Of a stretch of 64,000 nucleotides of DNA, positions 56,112 through 64,000 are shown piece after piece. The translations under genes and the position numbers were made by a program. Under the pieces are notes generated by a model. It saw nothing but the letters and a program-made list of their open reading frames with translations, was not told the origin of the DNA and ran no database searches. Location: the NCBI RefSeq assembly GCF_000949385.2, contig NZ_JYKO02000001.1:1946620-2010619 (forward strand), read 5' to 3'. The first letter of the stretch is position 1. Every line of letters starts with the position of its first letter. This DNA comes from Pseudomonas sp. LFM046. Lineage in GTDB: Bacteria > Pseudomonadota > Gammaproteobacteria > Pseudomonadales > Pseudomonadaceae.

Positions 56112-56699
56112 TCAATCCTTCAGCCGATTGCCACTTAACAGTTCAGGCGTATTGAGGTTGGCCAGGCGCGGGTCGCCTTCAGGGCAGTCCACGGCCACCG
56201 GGTCGAGCTGGCGCAGGATGCGTTGAGGGCTGCGCTCTCCGGCCTGCCAGCCGGCTTCCAGCACGGGCAGCAGCGCCCGGGGCAGGATGCAGAACAGCGG
56301 CTCCCAGAACTTGCCCTGACGCACCATGACCGGCCGCTCGCAGGCGGCGGCGAGCAGGCTGGCGATCAGGGTGTCGTCCACCTGCGGGGCGTCGCAGGGC
56401 AGGATCAGCACCTGCTCGTGGCGGGCTACCGCCAGGCCGGCGCGCATGCCCGCCAGCGGCCCGTGGAAGTCGGGGGTGTCATCCCGCACCAGTTGATCGG
56501 CCCAGGCCGCGTAGCGGTCTTCATTACGGTTGCAGGAAATGATCAGGTCGTCGGTGAGGGGGCGCACGCGCTCGTGCAGCCAGGCGATCAGGGGGCGGCC
56601 CCGCCACTCCACCAGGCCCTTGTCGCGACCACCCAGACGATGCCCGCGCCCACCGGCGAGCAGCAGGACGGAGCAGGGCGGTAAAGGCGTGTCGGACAT
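56112..56699 (-). CDS. mobA: Molybdenum cofactor guanylyltransferase
   Basis: 195 aa from ATG 56699. The nucleotide-binding motif [17 protein letters not shown] (canonical LAGGxxxRxGGxDK) and the PCDAPQV metal motif are present. MobA transfers GMP to molybdopterin, giving the bis-MGD cofactor of the DMSO-reductase family (nitrate reductase, formate dehydrogenase). Divergent from moaB-moeA with only about 67 bases between starts, so a shared promoter region controls all three cofactor genes. Confidence 0.95.
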
Positions 56700-56766
56700 G
56701 GCACGGTCTCCGGGGCGGCGCTGTGATATAACACCGGTCATTCACTCCTACAACTGGAAGCCTGCC

Positions 56767-57306
56767 ATGAGTCACAAGGCCGAGGCGGTGTTCGTGCCGC
56801 TCAATATTGCCGTTCTTACCGTCAGCGATACCCGCAGCCTGGAGACCGACACCTCCGGCCAGCTCTTCGTCGATCGCCTCACCGCCGCCGGCCACAACCT
56901 GGCGGCGCGGGTGCTGCTGAAAGACGACCTGTACAAGATCCGCGCCCAGGTCGCTACCTGGATCGCCGACGACGAGGTGCAGGTCGTGCTGATCACCGGC
57001 GGCACCGGCTTCACCGGCCGTGACAGCACCCCCGAAGCGGTGGCGTGCCTGCTGGACAAGCAGGTGGATGGTTTCGGCGAGTACTTCCGGCAGATTTCCG
57101 TTACCGACATCGGCACCTCCACCATGCAGTCCCGCGCCCTGGCCGGCCTGGCCAACAACACACTGGTCTGCTGCCTGCCGGGCTCCACCAATGCCTGCCG
57201 TACCGCCTGGGACGGCATCCTCGCCGAGCAGCTGGACAACCGTCATCGCCCCTGCAACTTCGTCCCGCATCTGATGCAGGCCAATGCCTGCGAGAGTCGC
57301 GGGTGA
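56767..57306 (+). CDS. moaB: Molybdopterin adenylyltransferase-like protein MoaB
   Basis: 179 aa from ATG 56767. The MoCF-biosynthesis domain shows NIAVLTVSDTRS, LITGGTGFTGRD and LPGSTNACRTAWDGILAEQLD. It is thought to adenylate molybdopterin before metal insertion; MoaB may replace MogA in some bacteria. Its TGA overlaps the GTG start of moeA (GTGA). Confidence 0.95.
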   Translation: MSHKAEAVFVPLNIAVLTVSDTRSLETDTSGQLFVDRLTAAGHNLAARVLLKDDLYKIRAQVATWIADDEVQVVLITGGTGFTGRDSTPEAVACLLDKQVDGFGEYFRQISVTDIGTSTMQSRALAGLANNTLVCCLPGSTNACRTAWDGILAEQLDNRHRPCNFVPHLMQANACESRG

Positions 57307-58517
57307 GCGGTTGCGACCATCCCGGCCTGATGCCGGTGGAAGATGCCCTGGCGCGCCTCCTGGCGCTGGCCGGGGCCGCGCAGATCACAGACAGCGAAAC
57401 CGTCCCCCTGGCCGAGGCCGATGGCCGCGTGCTGGCCGAGCCACTGGTGGCTGGCCTGGACCTGCCGCCGTGGGACAACAGCGCCATGGACGGTTACGCC
57501 CTGCGCCTGGGCGATCTTTCGGGGGAGCCGCTGGTGGTGAGCCAGCGCATCCTCGCCGGCAGCGCCCCTCAGCCTCTCCAGCCGGGCACCTGCGCGCGCA
57601 TCTTCACCGGTGCGCCGCTGCCGGACGGCGCGGATGTGGTGGAGATGCAGGAAAACGTCGAGGTTCTGGAAGATGGCCGGGTGCGTTTCCTGGAGCCGTT
57701 GAGGGCTGGCCAGAATGTGCGCCCCCGTGGCCAGGAAACCCGCGTTGGCGATACCGTGCTGCCCGCCGGCACCCGTTTGGGGCCCATCGAGATGGGCCTG
57801 TGCGCCTCCCTGGGCGCCGCCGAACTGGTGGTGCGCCGCCGTCCGGTGGTGGCGGTGATCTCCACGGGCGATGAGCTGGTACCGCCCGGCCAGCCGCTCG
57901 GCCCGGGGCAGATCTACAACAGCAACCGCAGCCTGCTGATTGCCTGGCTCAAGCGCCTGGGTTGTGCGGTGCTGGATGCCGGCATCCTTGCCGACGACCT
58001 GGAGCTCACCCGCACGGCCCTGGCCGGCCTGGCGGAGGTGGACCTGATCCTCTCCACCGGCGGGGTTTCCGTGGGCGAGGCGGACTTCCTCGGCGCGGCC
58101 CTGCGCGAGGAGGGCGAGCTGGCGTTGTGGAAGCTGGCGATCAAGCCGGGCAAGCCGCTGACCTTCGGGCACTTCCGTGGGGTGCCGGTAATCGGCCTGC
58201 CGGGCAATCCGGCCTCCACCCTGGTGACCTTCGGCCTGCTGGCGCGACCCTACCTGCTGCGCCGCCTCGGCGTGGAAGAAGTGGAGCCGCTGGGCTTCGT
58301 GGTGCCGGCCGGCTTCCTCTGGAAGAAACCCGGCAACCGCCGTGAGTACCTGCGCGCACGCCTGGAGCACGGCCGTGCGGTGATCTACCCGAACCAGAGC
58401 TCCGGCGTGCTGCGCAGCGCGGCCTGGGCCGAGGGGCTGGTGGAGGTGCTGGAAGGCACCACATTGGCCGAGGGGGATTCCGTGCGCTTCATTCCCTTGA
58501 GCGAGTTGCAGGCTTAG
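57303..58517 (+). CDS. moeA: Molybdopterin molybdenumtransferase
   Basis: 404 aa starting at GTG 57303 inside the moaB stop. MoeA inserts molybdate into adenylated molybdopterin. Visible: the N-terminal PPWDNSAMDGYAL motif, STGDEL, STGGVSVGEADF, KPGKPLTFG and LPGNPAS in the central MoCF domain, and a C-terminal beta barrel with YPNQSSG. Full length. With mobA it forms a compact molybdenum-cofactor locus, the second such set in Pseudomonas by memory (moaB2/moeA2). Confidence 0.96.
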   Translation: MSGCDHPGLMPVEDALARLLALAGAAQITDSETVPLAEADGRVLAEPLVAGLDLPPWDNSAMDGYALRLGDLSGEPLVVSQRILAGSAPQPLQPGTCARIFTGAPLPDGADVVEMQENVEVLEDGRVRFLEPLRAGQNVRPRGQETRVGDTVLPAGTRLGPIEMGLCASLGAAELVVRRRPVVAVISTGDELVPPGQPLGPGQIYNSNRSLLIAWLKRLGCAVLDAGILADDLELTRTALAGLAEVDLILSTGGVSVGEADFLGAALREEGELALWKLAIKPGKPLTFGHFRGVPVIGLPGNPASTLVTFGLLARPYLLRRLGVEEVEPLGFVVPAGFLWKKPGNRREYLRARLEHGRAVIYPNQSSGVLRSAAWAEGLVEVLEGTTLAEGDSVRFIPLSELQA

Positions 58518-58668: not shown

Positions 58669-59691
58669 TCAGCCTTGCCGCTTAGCTTCCCGATACTCCC
58701 CCGGCGTCTGCCCGGTCCAGGCCTTGAAGCTGCGGTGGAAGGAGCGGGATTCGGTGAAGCCCAGGTAGCAGGCGATGTCCTGGATCGGCAGGTCGCTGCG
58801 CAGCAGGTAATGCTCGGCCAGTTCGCGGCGCAGTTCGTCGAGGATCTGCTGGTAGCTGGTGCCGGCCTGCTGCAGGTGACGCTGCAGGGTCCGCACAGTC
58901 ATGTGGAATTTTTCCGCCACCCGTTCCTTGCGCGGCAGGCCGTCCTTGAGCAGCAGGCGCAAGGCATTCTTCACCCGTTGCGGCAGCGGCTCGTCGTCGT
59001 CCAGCCCGGCCATCAGCGACAGCGCGTGTTCTTCCAGGGTGCGCAGCAGGTTGGCGTCGGCCTGGCGCAAGGGCACAGCCAGATAGTCCAGCGGCACCAG
59101 CAGGGCACTGCAGGTTTGCTCGAACCGTACCGGGCAGCCGAACACCGCTTCATAGTCATCGGTCCGCGCACCCTCGGGCTGGGCATGCTCGAACCACACC
59201 TCCCGAGGTGAACGCTGCATGTCCGCGATCCAGCGTGCATAGAGCAGCCAGGACGCCAGCACGTTCTCCACCATGTGGCGGCGGATGGTCGGGTCCTGAT
59301 GGCGGCAACTCCAGATCATCCGCACCACATCGCCTTCGGCTTCAATACGGCTGACGCCCATGTCGCCCACCAGCTTCTCGTAGGGGGCGATGCGGCTCAT
59401 GGCTTCGCCCAGGGTCGCGCAGTTCATGGTGATGTAGCCCAGCACGCTCCAGGAGCCCGGCTGCACGTAGCGGGCGGAATGCAGGCCGAAGAGGGCGTCG
59501 CCGGAAACACGGATCAGATGGGCCAGCAGGCGCTCATGGGCTTCACTGGGCAGACGCTTGCTGTTGTCCGCCAGGTCCTCGGGACGGATGCCGACAGCAG
59601 CCAGCGTGCTGGCCTGGTCGAGGCCGAGCTGTTCGGCGTGACGCAGGTACTTGATGAGGGCGGGAACCGAGGTGTAGCCGAGCGAATGCAT
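58669..59691 (-). CDS. AraC-family transcriptional regulator
   Basis: 340 aa from ATG 59691. The long N-terminal region (about residues 20-205) is of the Arabinose_bd (PF12625-like, OruR/ArgR-type) kind. The C-terminal AraC HTH has VRTLQRHLQQAGTSYQQILDELRRELAEHYLLRSDLPIQDIACYLGFTESRSFHRSFKAWTGQTPGEYR, both helices intact. Divergent, by 126 bases, from the AGPS-like operon, which it most likely activates. Inducer unknown. Confidence 0.92.
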   Translation of the reverse strand: MHSLGYTSVPALIKYLRHAEQLGLDQASTLAAVGIRPEDLADNSKRLPSEAHERLLAHLIRVSGDALFGLHSARYVQPGSWSVLGYITMNCATLGEAMSRIAPYEKLVGDMGVSRIEAEGDVVRMIWSCRHQDPTIRRHMVENVLASWLLYARWIADMQRSPREVWFEHAQPEGARTDDYEAVFGCPVRFEQTCSALLVPLDYLAVPLRQADANLLRTLEEHALSLMAGLDDDEPLPQRVKNALRLLLKDGLPRKERVAEKFHMTVRTLQRHLQQAGTSYQQILDELRRELAEHYLLRSDLPIQDIACYLGFTESRSFHRSFKAWTGQTPGEYREAKRQG

Positions 59692-59724
59692 GGGGTTTCT
59701 TGTTATGTCCTGATTGGCGAAGGC

Positions 59725-59770
59725 CACTGTCCCGATTCGACAGTGACGCCCTGGAGCGGCTGGCTAGTAT
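59725..59770 (+). promoter_or_regulatory. Palindromic regulator site and possible promoter of the AGPS-like operon
   Basis: A perfect inverted repeat cactgtc (59725-59731) / gacagtg (59739-59745) with a seven-base spacer. It overlaps a possible -35 gtgacg (59743-59748); the -10 tagtat is at 59765-59770 with a 16-base spacer. Position next to the AraC gene suggests binding by that regulator or another dimer. Confidence 0.5.
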
Positions 59771-59817: not shown

Positions 59818-61413
59818 ATGCGACGCTGGAACGGCTGGGGCGATGAAGCGACGGTGGTGGAACTGCCCGACAATGGGGCGGCTTTCCTGGCCGAACGCAT
59901 AAGTGCTGGCCAACCCCTGCCGGACGCCAGCCTGGAACAGGTGCTGGCCCGAGTGCCCGCTTCGCGGCTGGACGCCCACCCGCTGATCAGCCTGGATGCC
60001 GAGACCCGTGTGCGCCACGCCCGTGGCCAGAGCCTGCCGGATTGGCTGGCGATGCGCGAAGGTGATTTCGGCCAGTTCCCCGACGGCGTCGCGTTTCCGG
60101 AAACCGCCGAGCAGATTCGCCAGTTGCTGGCCCTGGCCGCCGAGCGCGATCTGGTGCTGATTCCCTACGGCGGCGGCACCTCGGTGGCGGGCCATATCAA
60201 TCCCCAGGCGGGCGACCGGCCGGTGCTGACCCTGTCGCTGGAACGCATGAACCGTTTGCTGGAGCTGGACGAGGAAAGTCTGATCGCCACCTTCGGTCCC
60301 GGCGCCAATGGCCCACAGGTGGAAAGCCAGCTTCGTGCTCGGGGCTACACGCTGGGGCATTTCCCGCAGTCCTGGGAGTTGTCGACCCTCGGTGGCTGGG
60401 TGGCCAGCCGTTCCAGTGGCCAGCAGTCCCTGCGCTATGGGCGGATCGAGCAGCTGTTCGCGGGCGGGACCCTGGAAACCTTCGCCGGCCCCATGGCGCT
60501 GCCCACCTTCCCGGCTTCGGCGGCGGGGCCCGACCTGCGCGAGCTCGTGCTGGGTTCCGAAGGCCGTTTCGGGGTGATTTCCGAAGTGCGGGTGCGGGTC
60601 ACCCGGCTGGCGGAGCAGGAGTCCTTCTACGCGGTCTTCCTGCCCAACTGGAACCAGGCGCTCCAGGGCATCCGCAGCCTTGCCCAGGCGCGCGTCCCGC
60701 TGTCCATGCTGCGTTTGTCCAACGCCATCGAAACCGAGACCCAACTGGCCCTGGCCGGACACCCCGGGCAGATCGCGCTGCTGGAGAAGTACCTGGCCCT
60801 GCGCGGCGCGGGCGCCGGCAAGTGCATGCTGACCTTCGGCGTCACCGGCAACCGCGCCCAGAACGCCGCGTCGCTGAAGCAGGCCCGGCGCCTGTTGAAG
60901 CGCTTTGGCGGGGTGTTCACCGGCACCTTGCTGGGCAAGAAGTGGGCGCACAATCGCTTCCGCTTCCCCTACCTGCGCCATGCCCTGTGGAGCGCCGGCT
61001 ATGTGGTGGATACCCTGGAAACCGCCACCGACTGGGTCAACGTCGACAGCCTGCTCGGCAAGATCGAAGCCAGCCTGCGCAATGGTTTGAAGGACGAAGG
61101 CGAGCGGGTGCATGTATTCACCCACCTGTCCCACGTCTATGGCGAGGGATCGAGCATCTACACCTCCTACGTCTATCGCCCAGGCAGCAGCTACGCCGAG
61201 GCGCTGGCGCGCTGGCGCAAGTTGAAGTCCGCCGCCAGCGATGTAATCGCCCAGAACCGCGGCACCATCAGCCACCAGCACGGCGTCGGCCGTGACCACG
61301 CGCCCTGGCTGCCGGCGGAAAAGGGTCCGCTGGGCATGGCCGCGCTGCGCAACCTTGCGCGGCATTTCGATCCCGAGGGGCGCCTGGCTCCCGGCGTGCT
61401 GATCGAGGATTGA
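59818..61413 (+). CDS. FAD-linked alkyldihydroxyacetonephosphate synthase (AGPS)-like protein
   Basis: 531 aa. Motifs along the chain agree with eukaryotic AGPS: SLPDW (72-76), IPYGGGTSVAGHINP (115-129) for FAD binding, STLGGWVASRSSG (189-201), GSEGRFGVISE (246-256), R299 in SMLRLSN matching the SIRLMD arginine of the human enzyme, SSIYTSYVY (445-453) near the active-site tyrosine, and SHQHGVGRDH (485-494). AGPS swaps the acyl chain of acyl-DHAP for a fatty alcohol, forming the ether bond of ether lipids. In bacteria the reaction is unproven for most members; D-lactate/glycolate oxidases are distant relatives. Two bases before the GlpD-like gene. Confidence 0.86.
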   Translation: MRRWNGWGDEATVVELPDNGAAFLAERISAGQPLPDASLEQVLARVPASRLDAHPLISLDAETRVRHARGQSLPDWLAMREGDFGQFPDGVAFPETAEQIRQLLALAAERDLVLIPYGGGTSVAGHINPQAGDRPVLTLSLERMNRLLELDEESLIATFGPGANGPQVESQLRARGYTLGHFPQSWELSTLGGWVASRSSGQQSLRYGRIEQLFAGGTLETFAGPMALPTFPASAAGPDLRELVLGSEGRFGVISEVRVRVTRLAEQESFYAVFLPNWNQALQGIRSLAQARVPLSMLRLSNAIETETQLALAGHPGQIALLEKYLALRGAGAGKCMLTFGVTGNRAQNAASLKQARRLLKRFGGVFTGTLLGKKWAHNRFRFPYLRHALWSAGYVVDTLETATDWVNVDSLLGKIEASLRNGLKDEGERVHVFTHLSHVYGEGSSIYTSYVYRPGSSYAEALARWRKLKSAASDVIAQNRGTISHQHGVGRDHAPWLPAEKGPLGMAALRNLARHFDPEGRLAPGVLIED

Positions 61414-61415
61414 AC

Positions 61416-62990
61416 ATGGCCACCTGGAACGCCGAGTGGCGCGTGGCAGCGTTGCCGGAACTGGCCCGCCGCGACTGGGACCTGATCGTGGTCGGCGGCG
61501 GTATCTGCGGCGCCGGCATCCTGCGTGAGGCCGCTCGGCGGGGGTGGAAATGCCTGCTGCTGGAGCAGCGGGACTTCGCCTGGGGCACGTCCAGTCGCTC
61601 GTCGAAGATGGTCCATGGTGGCTTGCGCTATATCGCCAAGGGTCAACTGGCCCTGACCCGTGCTTCGGTACGCGAGCGCCAGCGCCTGCTGGCCGAGGCA
61701 CCGGGGCTGGTGGACCCGCTGAGTTTCGTCATGCCCCACCGCGGTGGCTTTCCGGGGCCAAGGGTGTTCGGCGGCCTGCTATCCCTCTACGACGCCCTGG
61801 CCGGGCGTCGCAACCATCTCTATTACCCGCTGCAGCAGTTGCGCTATCTGGTGCCCGGTCTTGCCGAAGGCGGCCTGGAGGGCGGCACTCGGTTCTTCGA
61901 TGCGGTGACCGATGATGCGCGGCTGGTGCTGCGGGTGTTGGGCGAGGCTCGCGCTGAAGGTGGCGAGGCGCTGAACGGCATGCGCGTGCTGACGCTGAAA
62001 CGGGAGCAGGGCAGGGTGACCGGCCTGGAGGCTGAAGATACCGAGAGTGGCCAACGTTGCGCCTTCCGCACCCGTGCCGTAGCCCTGGCGACCGGCGCCT
62101 GGGCCGATCGACTGCGCACGGTCGACGGTGCGGAACATATCCGCCCGCTGCGTGGCAGCCATTTGCTGCTGCCGGGCTGGCGCCTGCCGTTGGCCCACGC
62201 CGTCAGTTTCATGCACCCGGCGGATGGTCGACCGGTGTTCGTCTTCCCCTGGGAGGGCGCCACCGTCATCGGCACCACGGATCTCGACCACGACCAGGGG
62301 CTGGACCAGGACGCGAGCATCAGCGAGGCCGAGGTGGATTACCTGCTGGAGGCCTGCTACCTGCAATTCCCGGCGGCCGGCATCGGTCGGGGCGACGTGC
62401 TCTCCACGTGGGCGGGTGTGCGCCCTGTGGTGAGTGACGGCGAAGCGCAGCTGAAGCCTTCGGACGAAAAGCGCGAGCATGCGCTCTGGACTGAACCCGG
62501 TTGCGTGACCCTGGCCGGCGGCAAGCTGACCACCTTCCGCCTGCTGGCCCTGGACGTGCTGCGAGCGTGCGCCGGATTCGTCGGTCGCAGCCTGGAAGAC
62601 CATGGCAGCGCAGTCTTCGAGCCCTGCGCCGAACAGGCACTACCGGCCTTGTCTCCGGCCCAGCGTCTGCGCCTGGCGGGCCGTCATGGCCGCGCCCTGG
62701 CGGAGCTGGCGCCCTGGGTCGAATCGCTCGGCAATGAGCGAATCGGCGCCACCGACACGCTCTGGGCCGAGCTGGCCTGGGCGGCGGAAGGCGAACTGGT
62801 GCTGCACCTGGATGATCTGCTGCTGCGCCGCACGAGGATCGGCCTGCTGCTGCCCCGGGGCGGCCGGGACGAGCTGCCGCGCATCCGCGCACTGTGCCAG
62901 CCATTGCTGGGCTGGAGCGACGCCCGCTGGGCGCGCGAAGAGGCCGCTTACCTGGCCCTCTGGCAACGCTGTTACAGCCTGCCTGCATAA
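61416..62990 (+). CDS. GlpD-like FAD-dependent glycerol-3-phosphate dehydrogenase
   Basis: 524 aa from ATG 61416. Rossmann FAD motif VVGGGICGAGILREAARRG (residues 27-45), then SKMVHGGLRYIAKGQLALTRAS, typical of the GlpD/GPO family, PLRGSHLLLPG, VFPWEGATVIGTTD and the late LAGGKLTTFR. It oxidises G3P to DHAP, passing electrons to quinone. Pseudomonas normally has glpD beside glpFKR; this is a second copy in a different setting, next to the AGPS-like enzyme, so supply of DHAP to that enzyme is a reasonable inference. Lies between the synthase and the FGGY kinase in one operon. Confidence 0.93.
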   Translation: MATWNAEWRVAALPELARRDWDLIVVGGGICGAGILREAARRGWKCLLLEQRDFAWGTSSRSSKMVHGGLRYIAKGQLALTRASVRERQRLLAEAPGLVDPLSFVMPHRGGFPGPRVFGGLLSLYDALAGRRNHLYYPLQQLRYLVPGLAEGGLEGGTRFFDAVTDDARLVLRVLGEARAEGGEALNGMRVLTLKREQGRVTGLEAEDTESGQRCAFRTRAVALATGAWADRLRTVDGAEHIRPLRGSHLLLPGWRLPLAHAVSFMHPADGRPVFVFPWEGATVIGTTDLDHDQGLDQDASISEAEVDYLLEACYLQFPAAGIGRGDVLSTWAGVRPVVSDGEAQLKPSDEKREHALWTEPGCVTLAGGKLTTFRLLALDVLRACAGFVGRSLEDHGSAVFEPCAEQALPALSPAQRLRLAGRHGRALAELAPWVESLGNERIGATDTLWAELAWAAEGELVLHLDDLLLRRTRIGLLLPRGGRDELPRIRALCQPLLGWSDARWAREEAAYLALWQRCYSLPA

Positions 62991-63008
62991 CAAGAACAAG
63001 GACGCATC

Positions 63009-64000
63009 GTGAGCGAAAAAAGCTATCTGCTGGCTATCGATAACGGCACCCAGAGCGTGCGTGCCCTGCTGTTCGACCTGGAAGGCAACCTGGTGGGCAA
63101 GGGCAAGGTCCCGCTGGAGGCCTATTACTCCAGCCAGCCCGGCTGGGCGGAGCAGGACCCGGAATACTACTGGGCCAGCCTGGGCGAAGCCTGCCGGCTG
63201 CTGTGGGCGTCAGTGGACATCGACCGGAGTCTGATTCGCGGCGTGTCCCTCACCACCCAGCGCGGCACCGTCATCAATGTGGACGAGCAGGGCACGCCGT
63301 TGCGCCCGGCCATCCTCTGGCTGGACCAGCGCCAGGCCGAGGTGCGGGGGCGCATCAAGGGTCCCTGGGGCTGGCTGTTCAAGGCGATCGGCCTTGAGGG
63401 CACGGTGGACTACTTCCGCGCCCAGGCCGAGGTCAACTGGGTGGCGCAGAACCAGCCCGAACTCTGGGGCCGGACCCACAAGGTGCTGTTGCTCTCGGGC
63501 TTTCTCAGTCACCGGCTATGCGGGCGATTCGTCGACTCGGTGGCCTGCCAGGTGGCCTATCTGCCGTTCGATTACAAGCGCCTGCAATGGGCCGCGCCAC
63601 GGGACTGGAAGTGGCAGTCCATGCCGGTGCGCCGTGAGCAGCTGCCGGAGCTGTTCAAGCCCGGTTCGCGGCTCGGCAGCATCACCGCCGAGGCCTGCCG
63701 GCATACCGGCATTCCGGAAGGGCTGCCACTGATTGCCGCCGGTGCCGACAAGGCCTGCGAGGTGCTTGGCGCCGGTGGGGTGGAGCCGAGCGTCGCCTGC
63801 CTGTCCTACGGCACCACCGCGACCATCAACACCACGCGGCGCAAGTACCTGGAAACCATTCCGCTGATCCCGCCCTATCCGGCGGCCGTGCCTGATCACT
63901 TCAATACCGAGGTGATGATTTATCGCGGGTTCTGGATGGTCAGCTGGTTCAAGCAGGAGTTCGGCCTGCGGGAAATTCAGCGGGCGAAAGAGTTGGGGGT
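63009..64000 (+). CDS. FGGY-family carbohydrate kinase, 3' end outside the window
   Basis: Starts at GTG 63009 (aagga seven to eleven bases before it) and runs to the right edge without a stop, 330 codons visible. The N-terminus YLLAIDNGTQSVRALLFD is the DxGTxxxR phosphate motif; SLTTQRGTVINVDE, LWLDQRQAE and GADKACEVLGAGGVEPS...SYGTTATINT continue the FGGY pattern. Relatives phosphorylate glycerol, dihydroxyacetone, xylulose or ribulose. Beside a G3P dehydrogenase and an AGPS-like enzyme, a triose or glycerol substrate is most likely, but the sequence alone does not decide. Third gene of the operon. Confidence 0.9.
   Translation, partial: MSEKSYLLAIDNGTQSVRALLFDLEGNLVGKGKVPLEAYYSSQPGWAEQDPEYYWASLGEACRLLWASVDIDRSLIRGVSLTTQRGTVINVDEQGTPLRPAILWLDQRQAEVRGRIKGPWGWLFKAIGLEGTVDYFRAQAEVNWVAQNQPELWGRTHKVLLLSGFLSHRLCGRFVDSVACQVAYLPFDYKRLQWAAPRDWKWQSMPVRREQLPELFKPGSRLGSITAEACRHTGIPEGLPLIAAGADKACEVLGAGGVEPSVACLSYGTTATINTTRRKYLETIPLIPPYPAAVPDHFNTEVMIYRGFWMVSWFKQEFGLREIQRAKELG

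What the first reader, a model, noticed from the sequence alone, without database searches (positions are those of the whole stretch)
59818..64000. Possible bacterial ether-lipid operon: AGPS-like synthase, GlpD-like dehydrogenase and FGGY kinase under an AraC regulator
The first gene matches eukaryotic alkyl-DHAP synthase at the FAD motif, the STLGGWVASR segment, the SMLRLSN arginine, the SSIYTSYVY tyrosine segment and HQHGVGRDH. The two partners could make its substrate backbone: kinase to G3P or DHAP, dehydrogenase to DHAP. Ether lipids are hardly known in Pseudomonas. Set against this: no acyltransferase or fatty-alcohol source is visible in the window, and FAD-linked oxidases of other function share part of these motifs.
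Basis: partly seen in the sequence, partly recalled or inferred. Interest (0 to 1): 0.72.

Follow-up and report, generated by a model that had tools for sequence, protein, structure and literature searches.

The report
Ether-lipid enzyme trio, probably breaking down
Three neighbouring genes, kept together in the same order in bacteria of several phyla, look like a small pathway that strips the fatty chain from ether-linked glycerol lipids, using a relative of the enzyme animals use to build them; this direction is inferred, not yet tested.

Summary
The genes are as described. Gene 1 belongs to the alkyl-DHAP synthase (AGPS) superfamily: AGPS structures are its closest solved relatives, it lies outside the lactate/glycolate-oxidase clade, and three mutagenesis-tested residues (published R352/R447/Y508) are kept in 105 of 105 trio-type rows. 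The operon and regulator GliR are in print as PA3027-PA3024 (PMC8151288), with a glycerol-to-alkyl-DHAP proposal and no growth phenotype on deletion. I think the direction is more likely reversed. In 94 of 105 loci the unit is AGPS-like, GlpD-like, FGGY kinase, with few shared flanks. Four of nine other bacterial AGPS loci carry acyltransferase, reductase or SDR genes, as in myxobacteria. The trio has a kinase and a GlpD-type (oxidising) dehydrogenase instead: alkylglycerol to alkyl-G3P to alkyl-DHAP, then AGPS backwards. The kinase keeps the catalytic Asp but never has glycerol kinase's Glu84 (0 of 94); 20 of 23 trio genomes searched have a separate GlpK. My searches of open-licence papers showed no report of such a cleavage route.

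The parts
58669..59727 (-). gliR, AraC-type regulator (orthologue of PA3027); real start probably the ATG at 59691, where the NCBIfam model begins (residue 13)
   Evidence: NF050186 676.4 bits, cut-off 570; PF12625 and HTH_18
59725..59745 (.). inverted repeat CACTGTC-CCGATTC-GACAGTG, candidate GliR operator
   Evidence: sequence; a TGTC-N6..8-GACA repeat in 14 of the 16 loci whose upstream side was read; published motif A matches here only with 3 mismatches, not above chance in itself
59765..59770 (+). TAGTAT, possible -10 element of the trio promoter (inference)
   Evidence: inside GGCTGGCTAGTATAGGCA, present in 15 of the 16 readable loci
59818..61413 (+). AGPS-superfamily flavoenzyme (orthologue of PA3026)
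61410..62990 (+). GlpD-like FAD dehydrogenase (orthologue of PA3025), divergent from the housekeeping GlpD
   Evidence: (260.2 bits, cut-off 360)
63009..64000 (+). FGGY-family kinase (orthologue of PA3024), 5' part; ends at window-equivalent 64568 (L005 5629-7188)

Best explanation
The three genes encode a catabolic module for 1-O-alkylglycerols (glycerol ethers). FGGY kinase: 1-O-alkyl-sn-glycerol to 1-O-alkyl-sn-glycerol-3-phosphate. GlpD-like enzyme: oxidises C2 to 1-O-alkyl-DHAP, electrons to the quinone pool. AGPS-like enzyme: opposite direction to AGPS; the flavin N5 captures the DHAP carbon, fatty alcohol leaves, and a fatty acid (giving acyl-DHAP) or water (giving DHAP) takes its place. 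Alcohol and DHAP feed beta-oxidation and glycolysis. Transcription follows lipid cues: GliR in many Pseudomonadota, a FadR-type regulator in many Chloroflexota loci. Shown: gene unit, family memberships, conserved or changed residues, regulator families. Inferred: substrate, direction, second substrate, regulator ligands.
For: (1) Trio in the same order and strand: 23 of 25 unnamed loci (in L066 an opposite-strand ATPase gene is inserted) and 71 of 80 named loci. Among ORF clusters of 4 or more loci, few flanks cross lineages, and those scanned belong to generic families. (2) The three families chemically chain: kinase product is the dehydrogenase substrate, whose product is the AGPS product. 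(3) Bacterial AGPS loci L082-L085 carry acyltransferase, FAR-like and/or SDR genes, and L083/L085 resemble MXAN_1676-1674 (PMC9131029); genome G259 has both kinds (L065, L085). GlpD enzymes oxidise via quinone (established knowledge), opposite to the reductase of synthesis. (4) Kinase: R83, W103, D245 kept 94/94; E84 never E (57 G, 28 A, 5 S, 2 Y, 1 N, 1 D), Y135 replaced in 93/94, F270 to T in 94/94 (residue roles recalled). 20 of 23 trio genomes searched also have a GlpK over cut-off. (5) AGPS: R419/R515/Y578 kept 105/105. (6) FadR_C domain in 11 of 11 scanned upstream regulators; two of two over NCBIfam's NF003444 FadR cut-off. (7) Published: GliR excess activates the phospholipase C gene plcA; a lipolytic enzyme gene lies in the R. 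ferrireducens cluster; operon deletion had no growth phenotype on glycerol (PMC8151288).
Against: No activity, growth or lipid data. AGPS is known in the ether-forming direction (PMC3509576); reverse flux is only inferred. Changed kinase residues show it is no ordinary glycerol kinase, not that it takes alkylglycerol; its best NCBIfam score is XylB, below cut-off. Six loci have AGPS and GlpD-like but no FGGY (L067, L127, L161, L175, L176, L179), one has AGPS alone with room downstream (L149). An SDR, a possible reductase of the synthetic direction, lies beside the FadR gene in L152 and near gliR in four Janthinobacterium loci; SDR was not among the BLAST seeds. PlcA family PF04185 was not found in the own genome, and the cloned plcA promoter was not activated by GliR in E. 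coli (PMC8151288). FadR can also govern synthesis genes; 3 of 13 Chloroflexota loci lack it. PA3026 protein was lower on octadecane than hexadecane (ratios 0.5 and 0.57), uninformative on direction.
Confidence: 0.47

Rival explanations
1. Ether-lipid synthesis without a DHAP acyltransferase: kinase phosphorylates 1-monoacylglycerol to lyso-phosphatidate, GlpD-like oxidises it to 1-acyl-DHAP, and AGPS-like swaps acyl for a fatty alcohol, giving alkyl-DHAP.
For: Also uses all three enzymes in sequence and explains the missing acyltransferase; AGPS in its known direction with catalytic residues kept; an SDR that could reduce alkyl-DHAP lies near the trio in 5 of 80 named loci (L137, L142, L152, L154, L181).
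Against: In most loci neither a reductase nor a fatty-alcohol source recurs near the trio (SDRs not searched for systematically); ether lipids are not known to me in these genera (recalled). FAR absence in the own genome is unproven.
Confidence: 0.18
2. Published proposal: glycerol to G3P to DHAP by the kinase and dehydrogenase, acylation by an enzyme elsewhere, then alkyl-DHAP by the AGPS-like enzyme (PMC8151288; also the first reader's view).
For: Family names fit; 3 of 23 trio genomes (G002, G018, G184) show no GlpK over cut-off; the paper reports no glpD or glpK homologues in its cluster-bearing strains outside Pseudomonas.
Against: DHAP is already supplied by GlpK/GlpD and glycolysis; the kinase lacks GlpK's Glu84 and Phe270 in 94 of 94; no growth phenotype on glycerol; 20 of 23 genomes keep a separate GlpK.
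Confidence: 0.1
3. Catabolism or salvage of a non-ether glycerolipid, such as monoacylglycerol or another 1-substituted glycerol; the AGPS-like enzyme removes the substituent from the DHAP derivative.
For: Gln replaces AGPS His616 in 103 of 105 and Asp303 in 105 of 105, so the second half-reaction may differ; PLC and FadR links do not need ethers.
Against: Ordinary lipases would free monoacylglycerol chains without flavin chemistry; AGPS chemistry is chiefly useful for an ether (inference).
Confidence: 0.15

Closest known systems
P. aeruginosa PA3027 (GliR) - PA3026-PA3023 (PMC8151288)
   Same: Same regulator family (NF050186) and same divergent AGPS-like, GlpD-like, FGGY order; YegS-like kinase further right.
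   Different: Here a pirin-like gene on the other strand lies between kinase and YegS; the paper reports a pirin-domain gene at that place for P. mendocina. PlcA family PF04185 not found in this genome. My reading reverses the pathway direction.
Eukaryotic alkyl-DHAP synthase (AGPS; 2uuu, 4bby)
   Same: Superfamily, RWNGWGD N-terminal motif (Dd: KWNGWGD), Arg/Arg/Tyr catalytic residues, two of three His.
   Different: His616 is Gln, Asp303 is Gln; gene partners are a kinase and an oxidising dehydrogenase.
Myxobacterial MXAN_1676-1674 ether-lipid operon (PMC9131029, passages read)
   Same: Also a bacterial AGPS relative in a three-gene operon.
   Different: Partners there are FAR plus GNPAT-like acyltransferase and an epimerase/dehydratase; my loci L083 and L085 look like that type, the trio does not. 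Disrupting MXAN_1676 lowered ether lipids only slightly, per that review.
Alkylglycerol monooxygenase (AGMO) breakdown (PMC7911779, abstract and passages)
   Same: Same proposed substrate class, alkylglycerols.
   Different: AGMO is a tetrahydrobiopterin-dependent membrane oxygenase (oxygen use recalled); the trio would need neither.
Animal alkylglycerol kinase activity, EC 2.7.1.93 (named in a passage of PMC9131029)
   Same: Same reaction as proposed for the FGGY kinase.
   Different: There it feeds synthesis; no sequence compared here.
GlpK/GlpD glycerol catabolism
   Same: Kinase then FAD dehydrogenase; catalytic residues conserved.
   Different: Residues at the glycerol site changed in the kinase; canonical copies elsewhere.

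Membership tests
AGPS superfamily | Sequence kinship closer to AGPS than to other FAD_oxidase_C enzymes | tested here: met
   Searches (243.5 against 71.3 bits; 397.9 against 127.4 bits), tree (51 AGPS-side rows apart from 5 FAD oxidases, 100/99)
AGPS superfamily | Catalytic Arg, Arg, Tyr (Dd R352, R447, Y508 in PMC3509576) | tested here: met
   105 of 105 rows; the three own-genome FAD oxidases L001-L003 have Glu, non-Arg, His
AGPS superfamily | HHH motif near the flavin (role recalled) | tested here: not met
   HQH in 103 of 105, HHH in L069 and L077; HHH in 9 of 9 other bacterial AGPS relatives
AGPS (enzyme, EC 2.5.1.26) | Makes alkyl-DHAP from acyl-DHAP and fatty alcohol | not testable with these tools
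   needs assay
Ether-lipid biosynthesis operon | Acyltransferase or fatty-acyl reductase neighbours | tested here: not met
   0 acyltransferase and 1 weak FAR-like hit in 105 loci against 4 of 9 other AGPS loci; five BLAST seeds at E 1e-6, so not exhaustive
Ether-lipid biosynthesis operon | Alkyl-DHAP reductase (SDR) neighbour | tested here: inconclusive
   not searched systematically; SDR in L152 and L137 by Pfam, similar ORFs in L142, L154, L181
Glycerol kinase GlpK | Score over NCBIfam cut-off; Glu84, Tyr135, Phe270 (roles recalled) | tested here: not met
   150.6 bits against 590.35; residues changed
Aerobic G3P dehydrogenase GlpD | Score over cut-off; R54, Y55, H233, R317, R332, K354 (roles recalled) | tested here: inconclusive
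   260.2 bits against 360, so cut-off not met; residues kept in 101-102 of 102 rows, but Tyr246 absent in 102 of 102
GliR | Over NCBIfam cut-off, divergent to the trio | tested here: met
   geometry
FadR (12 distant loci) | FadR_C domain and FadR equivalog score | tested here: met
   FadR_C in 11 of 11 scanned (L179 not scanned); 217.4 and 199.4 bits against 189 for NF003444 in the two scanned, both below the stricter TIGR02812 cut-off 249.2

The most novel reading that the evidence does not exclude
An oxygen-independent bacterial pathway cleaves glycerol-ether lipids by phosphorylation, oxidation and AGPS chemistry run backwards, the mirror image of ether-lipid synthesis, with the His616-to-Gln change tuning the flavin adduct for fatty-alcohol release. 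It would include a bacterial alkylglycerol kinase and a 1-O-alkyl-G3P dehydrogenase, and occur in at least three phyla.
Probability: 0.43. Interest if true: 0.78.

Novelty: new variant of a known kind. Interest (0 to 1): 0.55.

Why it matters
A 2021 review calls AGMO the only known enzyme that breaks down alkylglycerols (PMC7911779 abstract). A widespread bacterial route that needs no oxygen for the cleavage would help explain how ether lipids from animals, protists and bacteria are recycled, and would give a function to a conserved Pseudomonas operon whose deletion showed no growth phenotype in the conditions published. It makes a simple growth and enzyme test available.

Tried and rejected
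Grouping with D-lactate, glycolate or 2-hydroxyglutarate dehydrogenases: rejected.

Kinase as replacement for a lost GlpK: rejected as a general explanation (20 of 23 have GlpK over cut-off; of the 24 trio genomes whose regions I fetched, the incomplete G185 was left out); open for G002, G018, G184.

Conserved flanking genes that would name the pathway: I scanned one or a few examples of the recurrent clusters. Lineage-specific ones: aminotransferase and P450 in Burkholderiales, HAD hydrolase and a tRNA-synthetase-like gene in Nevskiales, starch-synthase-like gene in four Chloroflexota loci, one scanned. Clusters that cross lineages (4 or more loci) were GGDEF/EAL signalling proteins, a type II/IV secretion ATPase (4 Burkholderiales and 4 Marinobacter kin), a peptidase S9-like gene, and genes shared by Nevskiales and one gamma MAG.

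Chloroflexota loci without FGGY: I looked for a substitute kinase next door among the genes scanned and found none; L127 has a separate FGGY gene on the other strand. Why FGGY is missing in L176 (Massilia) was not followed up.

Published GliR motifs A and B: in the gliR/AGPS gap (L005 2312-2437) the only listed match is motif A with 3 mismatches, which coincides with the inverted repeat.

FAR in the own genome: PF07993 hits are weak and ring in all 14 controls, PF03015 rang nowhere, so absence is not shown.

Literature for bacterial alkylglycerol catabolism or reverse AGPS: searches (open-licence PMC only). I saw listings and abstract starts of 20 of 197, 20 of 536, 20 of 574, 12 of 39 and 12 of 541 papers; none of those rows reports it. 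Of the 19 papers naming PA3023-PA3027 I opened three; PMC4412052 lists PA3025 among genes changed by cis-2-decenoic acid (one passage).

Errors corrected: the Dd positions were indexed 3 residues off the published numbering (R352/R447/Y508 are chain positions 349/444/505), checked by the aligned gp columns. In one search the own-GlpK row was read in the wrong frame and discarded; redone. My notebook says 26 unnamed trio loci; the count is 25.
Full report
Observation. The window ends inside the operon. The AGPS-like gene (59818-61413), the GlpD-like gene (61410-62990) and the FGGY kinase (63009 to window-equivalent 64568) lie on one strand with a 4-base overlap and an 18-base gap, opposite an AraC-type gene. 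To the right come a pirin-like gene on the other strand and a YegS-like lipid kinase (both names come from recall and PMC8151288, YegS also from its orthologue PA3023). Locus L005 position p equals window p + 57380. The regulator is NCBIfam GliR. Kotecka et al. 2021 (PMC8151288; I read the abstract, passages and sections 2.5 and 3) studied the P. aeruginosa orthologues: excess GliR raises PA3026-PA3023 and plcA mRNA strongly and GliR binds those promoters; the cloned PA3026 promoter, but not the cloned plcA one, is activated in E. coli. Deleting PA3026-PA3024 gave no growth phenotype on L broth, citrate, glycerol, osmotic media or the Biolog plates used. They already propose glycerol to alkylglycerone phosphate.

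Is it AGPS? By sequence yes. AGPS structures lead by far. In a tree of 56 rows (40 trio, 9 other bacterial AGPS relatives, 2 eukaryotic AGPS, 5 FAD oxidases) the AGPS side is separated from the FAD oxidases at 100/99 and the trio enzymes form one group at 100/99; five other bacterial relatives (L086-L090) join them at 97/77, and three (L083-L085) group with guinea-pig AGPS at 100/100; L082 and Dd AGPS are unplaced. The tree warns of long branches (L002, L067_X, L003, L069, Dd). The residues reported as important for catalysis (R352, R447, Y508; PMC3509576, passages) are present in 105 of 105 trio-type rows; gp His615 and His617 too; His616 is Gln in 103 and Asp303 is Gln in 105. At least one pair of rows is a duplicate (L091 and L182), so counts are of loci, not of independent lineages.

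How widespread. Matches at E up to 1e-60 in 54 of 148 Pseudomonadaceae genomes; the own genome and the 17 same-genus genomes listed all match, 74 genomes without a match being unlisted. At 1e-50, 12 of 369 genomes of the class sample and 19 of 398 of the phylum sample match (these include the remote AGPS group and the own genome). The first sequence of the query was from another member of the class, so the 80 are biased to its kin; MAG labels are as deposited.

The conserved unit. Full trio in 23 of 25 unnamed loci (L063 cut by contig end, L067 without FGGY) and 71 of 80 named loci (5 with GlpD-like but no FGGY, 3 cut, 1 without GlpD-like). Few neighbours outside the trio recur between lineages, and those that do are of large generic families. 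A gliR-like gene is divergent and adjacent in 40 of 80 named loci. In 12 named loci (11 plus L146: 10 of the 13 Chloroflexota, one Bacillota and one Acidobacteria MAG) a FadR-type gene lies upstream on the same strand; FadR_C was found in all 11 that I scanned (L179 was not scanned), and the two scanned against NCBIfam exceed the FadR cut-off of NF003444 but not that of TIGR02812. FadR_C binds long-chain acyl-CoA in E. coli (established knowledge).

An internal control. The nine other bacterial AGPS relatives have no GlpD-like or FGGY neighbour in the stretches fetched. Four of them, L082-L085, have acyltransferase, FAR-like and/or SDR genes next door, or an acyltransferase-like part in the same ORF (L084); the other five, L086-L090, show none among the genes scanned or with the seeds. 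The L083 and L085 layouts resemble the myxobacterial operon MXAN_1676-1674, AGPS with FAR-GNPAT and an epimerase/dehydratase (PMC9131029, passages). With five such seeds, 105 trio loci gave no acyltransferase and one weak FAR-like hit (L065, 23% identity, 1e-7). SDRs were not seeded: one lies beside the FadR gene of L152, and similar ORFs lie near gliR in L137, L142, L154 and L181 (L137 is an SDR by Pfam). These could serve either direction: alkyl-DHAP reduction, or fatty-alcohol oxidation. Genome G259 carries both AGPS types, trio L065 and biosynthesis-like L085.

The partner enzymes. Canonical GlpK and GlpD are present elsewhere in the own genome. In 23 trio genomes searched, 20 have a GlpK over the curated cut-off; G002, G018 and G184 do not. 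Among 94 trio kinases, Arg83, Trp103 and Asp245 (GlpK numbering) are invariant, but Glu84 is never Glu (one Asp), Tyr135 is Tyr once, Gln246 is Lys in 92 and Phe270 is Thr in 94 (comparators were only the own GlpK and 2zf5). I recall that Glu84 and Tyr135 contact the glycerol hydroxyls. Among 102 GlpD-like proteins the active-site residues I recall from E. coli GlpD are kept (one gap each at three of them), while Tyr246, invariant in four GlpD/GlpO references, is never Tyr and mostly Ser or Thr; where Tyr246 sits relative to substrate I could not check.

Mechanism. In known ether-lipid synthesis alkyl-DHAP is made from acyl-DHAP by AGPS, then reduced to alkyl-G3P (PMC9131029). The trio pairs AGPS chemistry with an enzyme family that oxidises glycerol-3-phosphates into the quinone pool, and with a kinase. 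The economical reading is the mirror image: alkylglycerol is phosphorylated, oxidised to alkyl-DHAP, and split by the AGPS-like enzyme into fatty alcohol and (acyl-)DHAP. AGPS is ping-pong with a flavin-DHAP intermediate (PMC3509576), so the reverse half-reaction is chemically reasonable. The lipid-linked regulators and the published PLC target fit. All of this is inference from genes; a synthesis route from monoacylglycerol would use the same three enzymes and is my main rival.

Regulatory site. The gap holds a perfect inverted repeat CACTGTC-N7-GACAGTG at 59725-59745. In one search only 16 of 30 loci were read on the correct side (the other 14 lay in the opposite orientation and were dropped); 14 of the 16 have the repeat. 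It overlaps the GTG that the ORF listing took as gliR start, which favours the ATG at 59691.

Verdict. A real, widely conserved three-gene module; AGPS kinship right; operon already described; direction probably catabolic. Interest is moderate because direction and substrate are untested.

Noticed in passing
L005 7268-8035 (-) and 8163-9065 (+), i.e. window-equivalent 64648-65415 and 65543-66445: Pirin-like gene convergent between the kinase and a YegS-like lipid kinase; a YegS hit follows in 7 of 10 unnamed Pseudomonadaceae loci and in 0 of 15 other unnamed trio loci.
   Followed up: partly
window 56112-58517: Genes that look like mobA, moaB and moeA (molybdenum cofactor, named from recall of the sequences) lie left of gliR.
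   Followed up: no
L084 286-2763 (-): AGPS relative whose 822-aa ORF also matches acyltransferase seeds, so probably an AGPS-acyltransferase fusion.
   Followed up: partly
L105 8001-9689: Locus titled Endozoicomonas sp. G2_2 groups with Salinisphaera kin in the tree, so the name may be wrong.
   Followed up: no
G127:C1:2288628-2290221: In one same-genus genome the AGPS-like gene gives two overlapping matches in different frames.
   Followed up: no
L153 5426-7120 (-): GMC oxidoreductase divergent from the FadR gene of a Chloroflexota trio; the family includes long-chain alcohol oxidases (recalled).
   Followed up: no
L137 5924-6721 (-) and L142, L154, L181: SDR gene just beyond gliR and on its strand in four Janthinobacterium loci; might be an alkyl-DHAP reductase or a fatty-alcohol dehydrogenase.
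   Followed up: partly
L147 4235-5710 and 8 related loci: Cytochrome P450 (one scanned) about 3.6 kb upstream of the trio in Duganella and relatives.
   Followed up: no
L086-L090: A second remote AGPS group, joined to the trio enzymes at 97/77, with Gln at position 303 but an HHH motif and no shared partners seen.
   Followed up: partly
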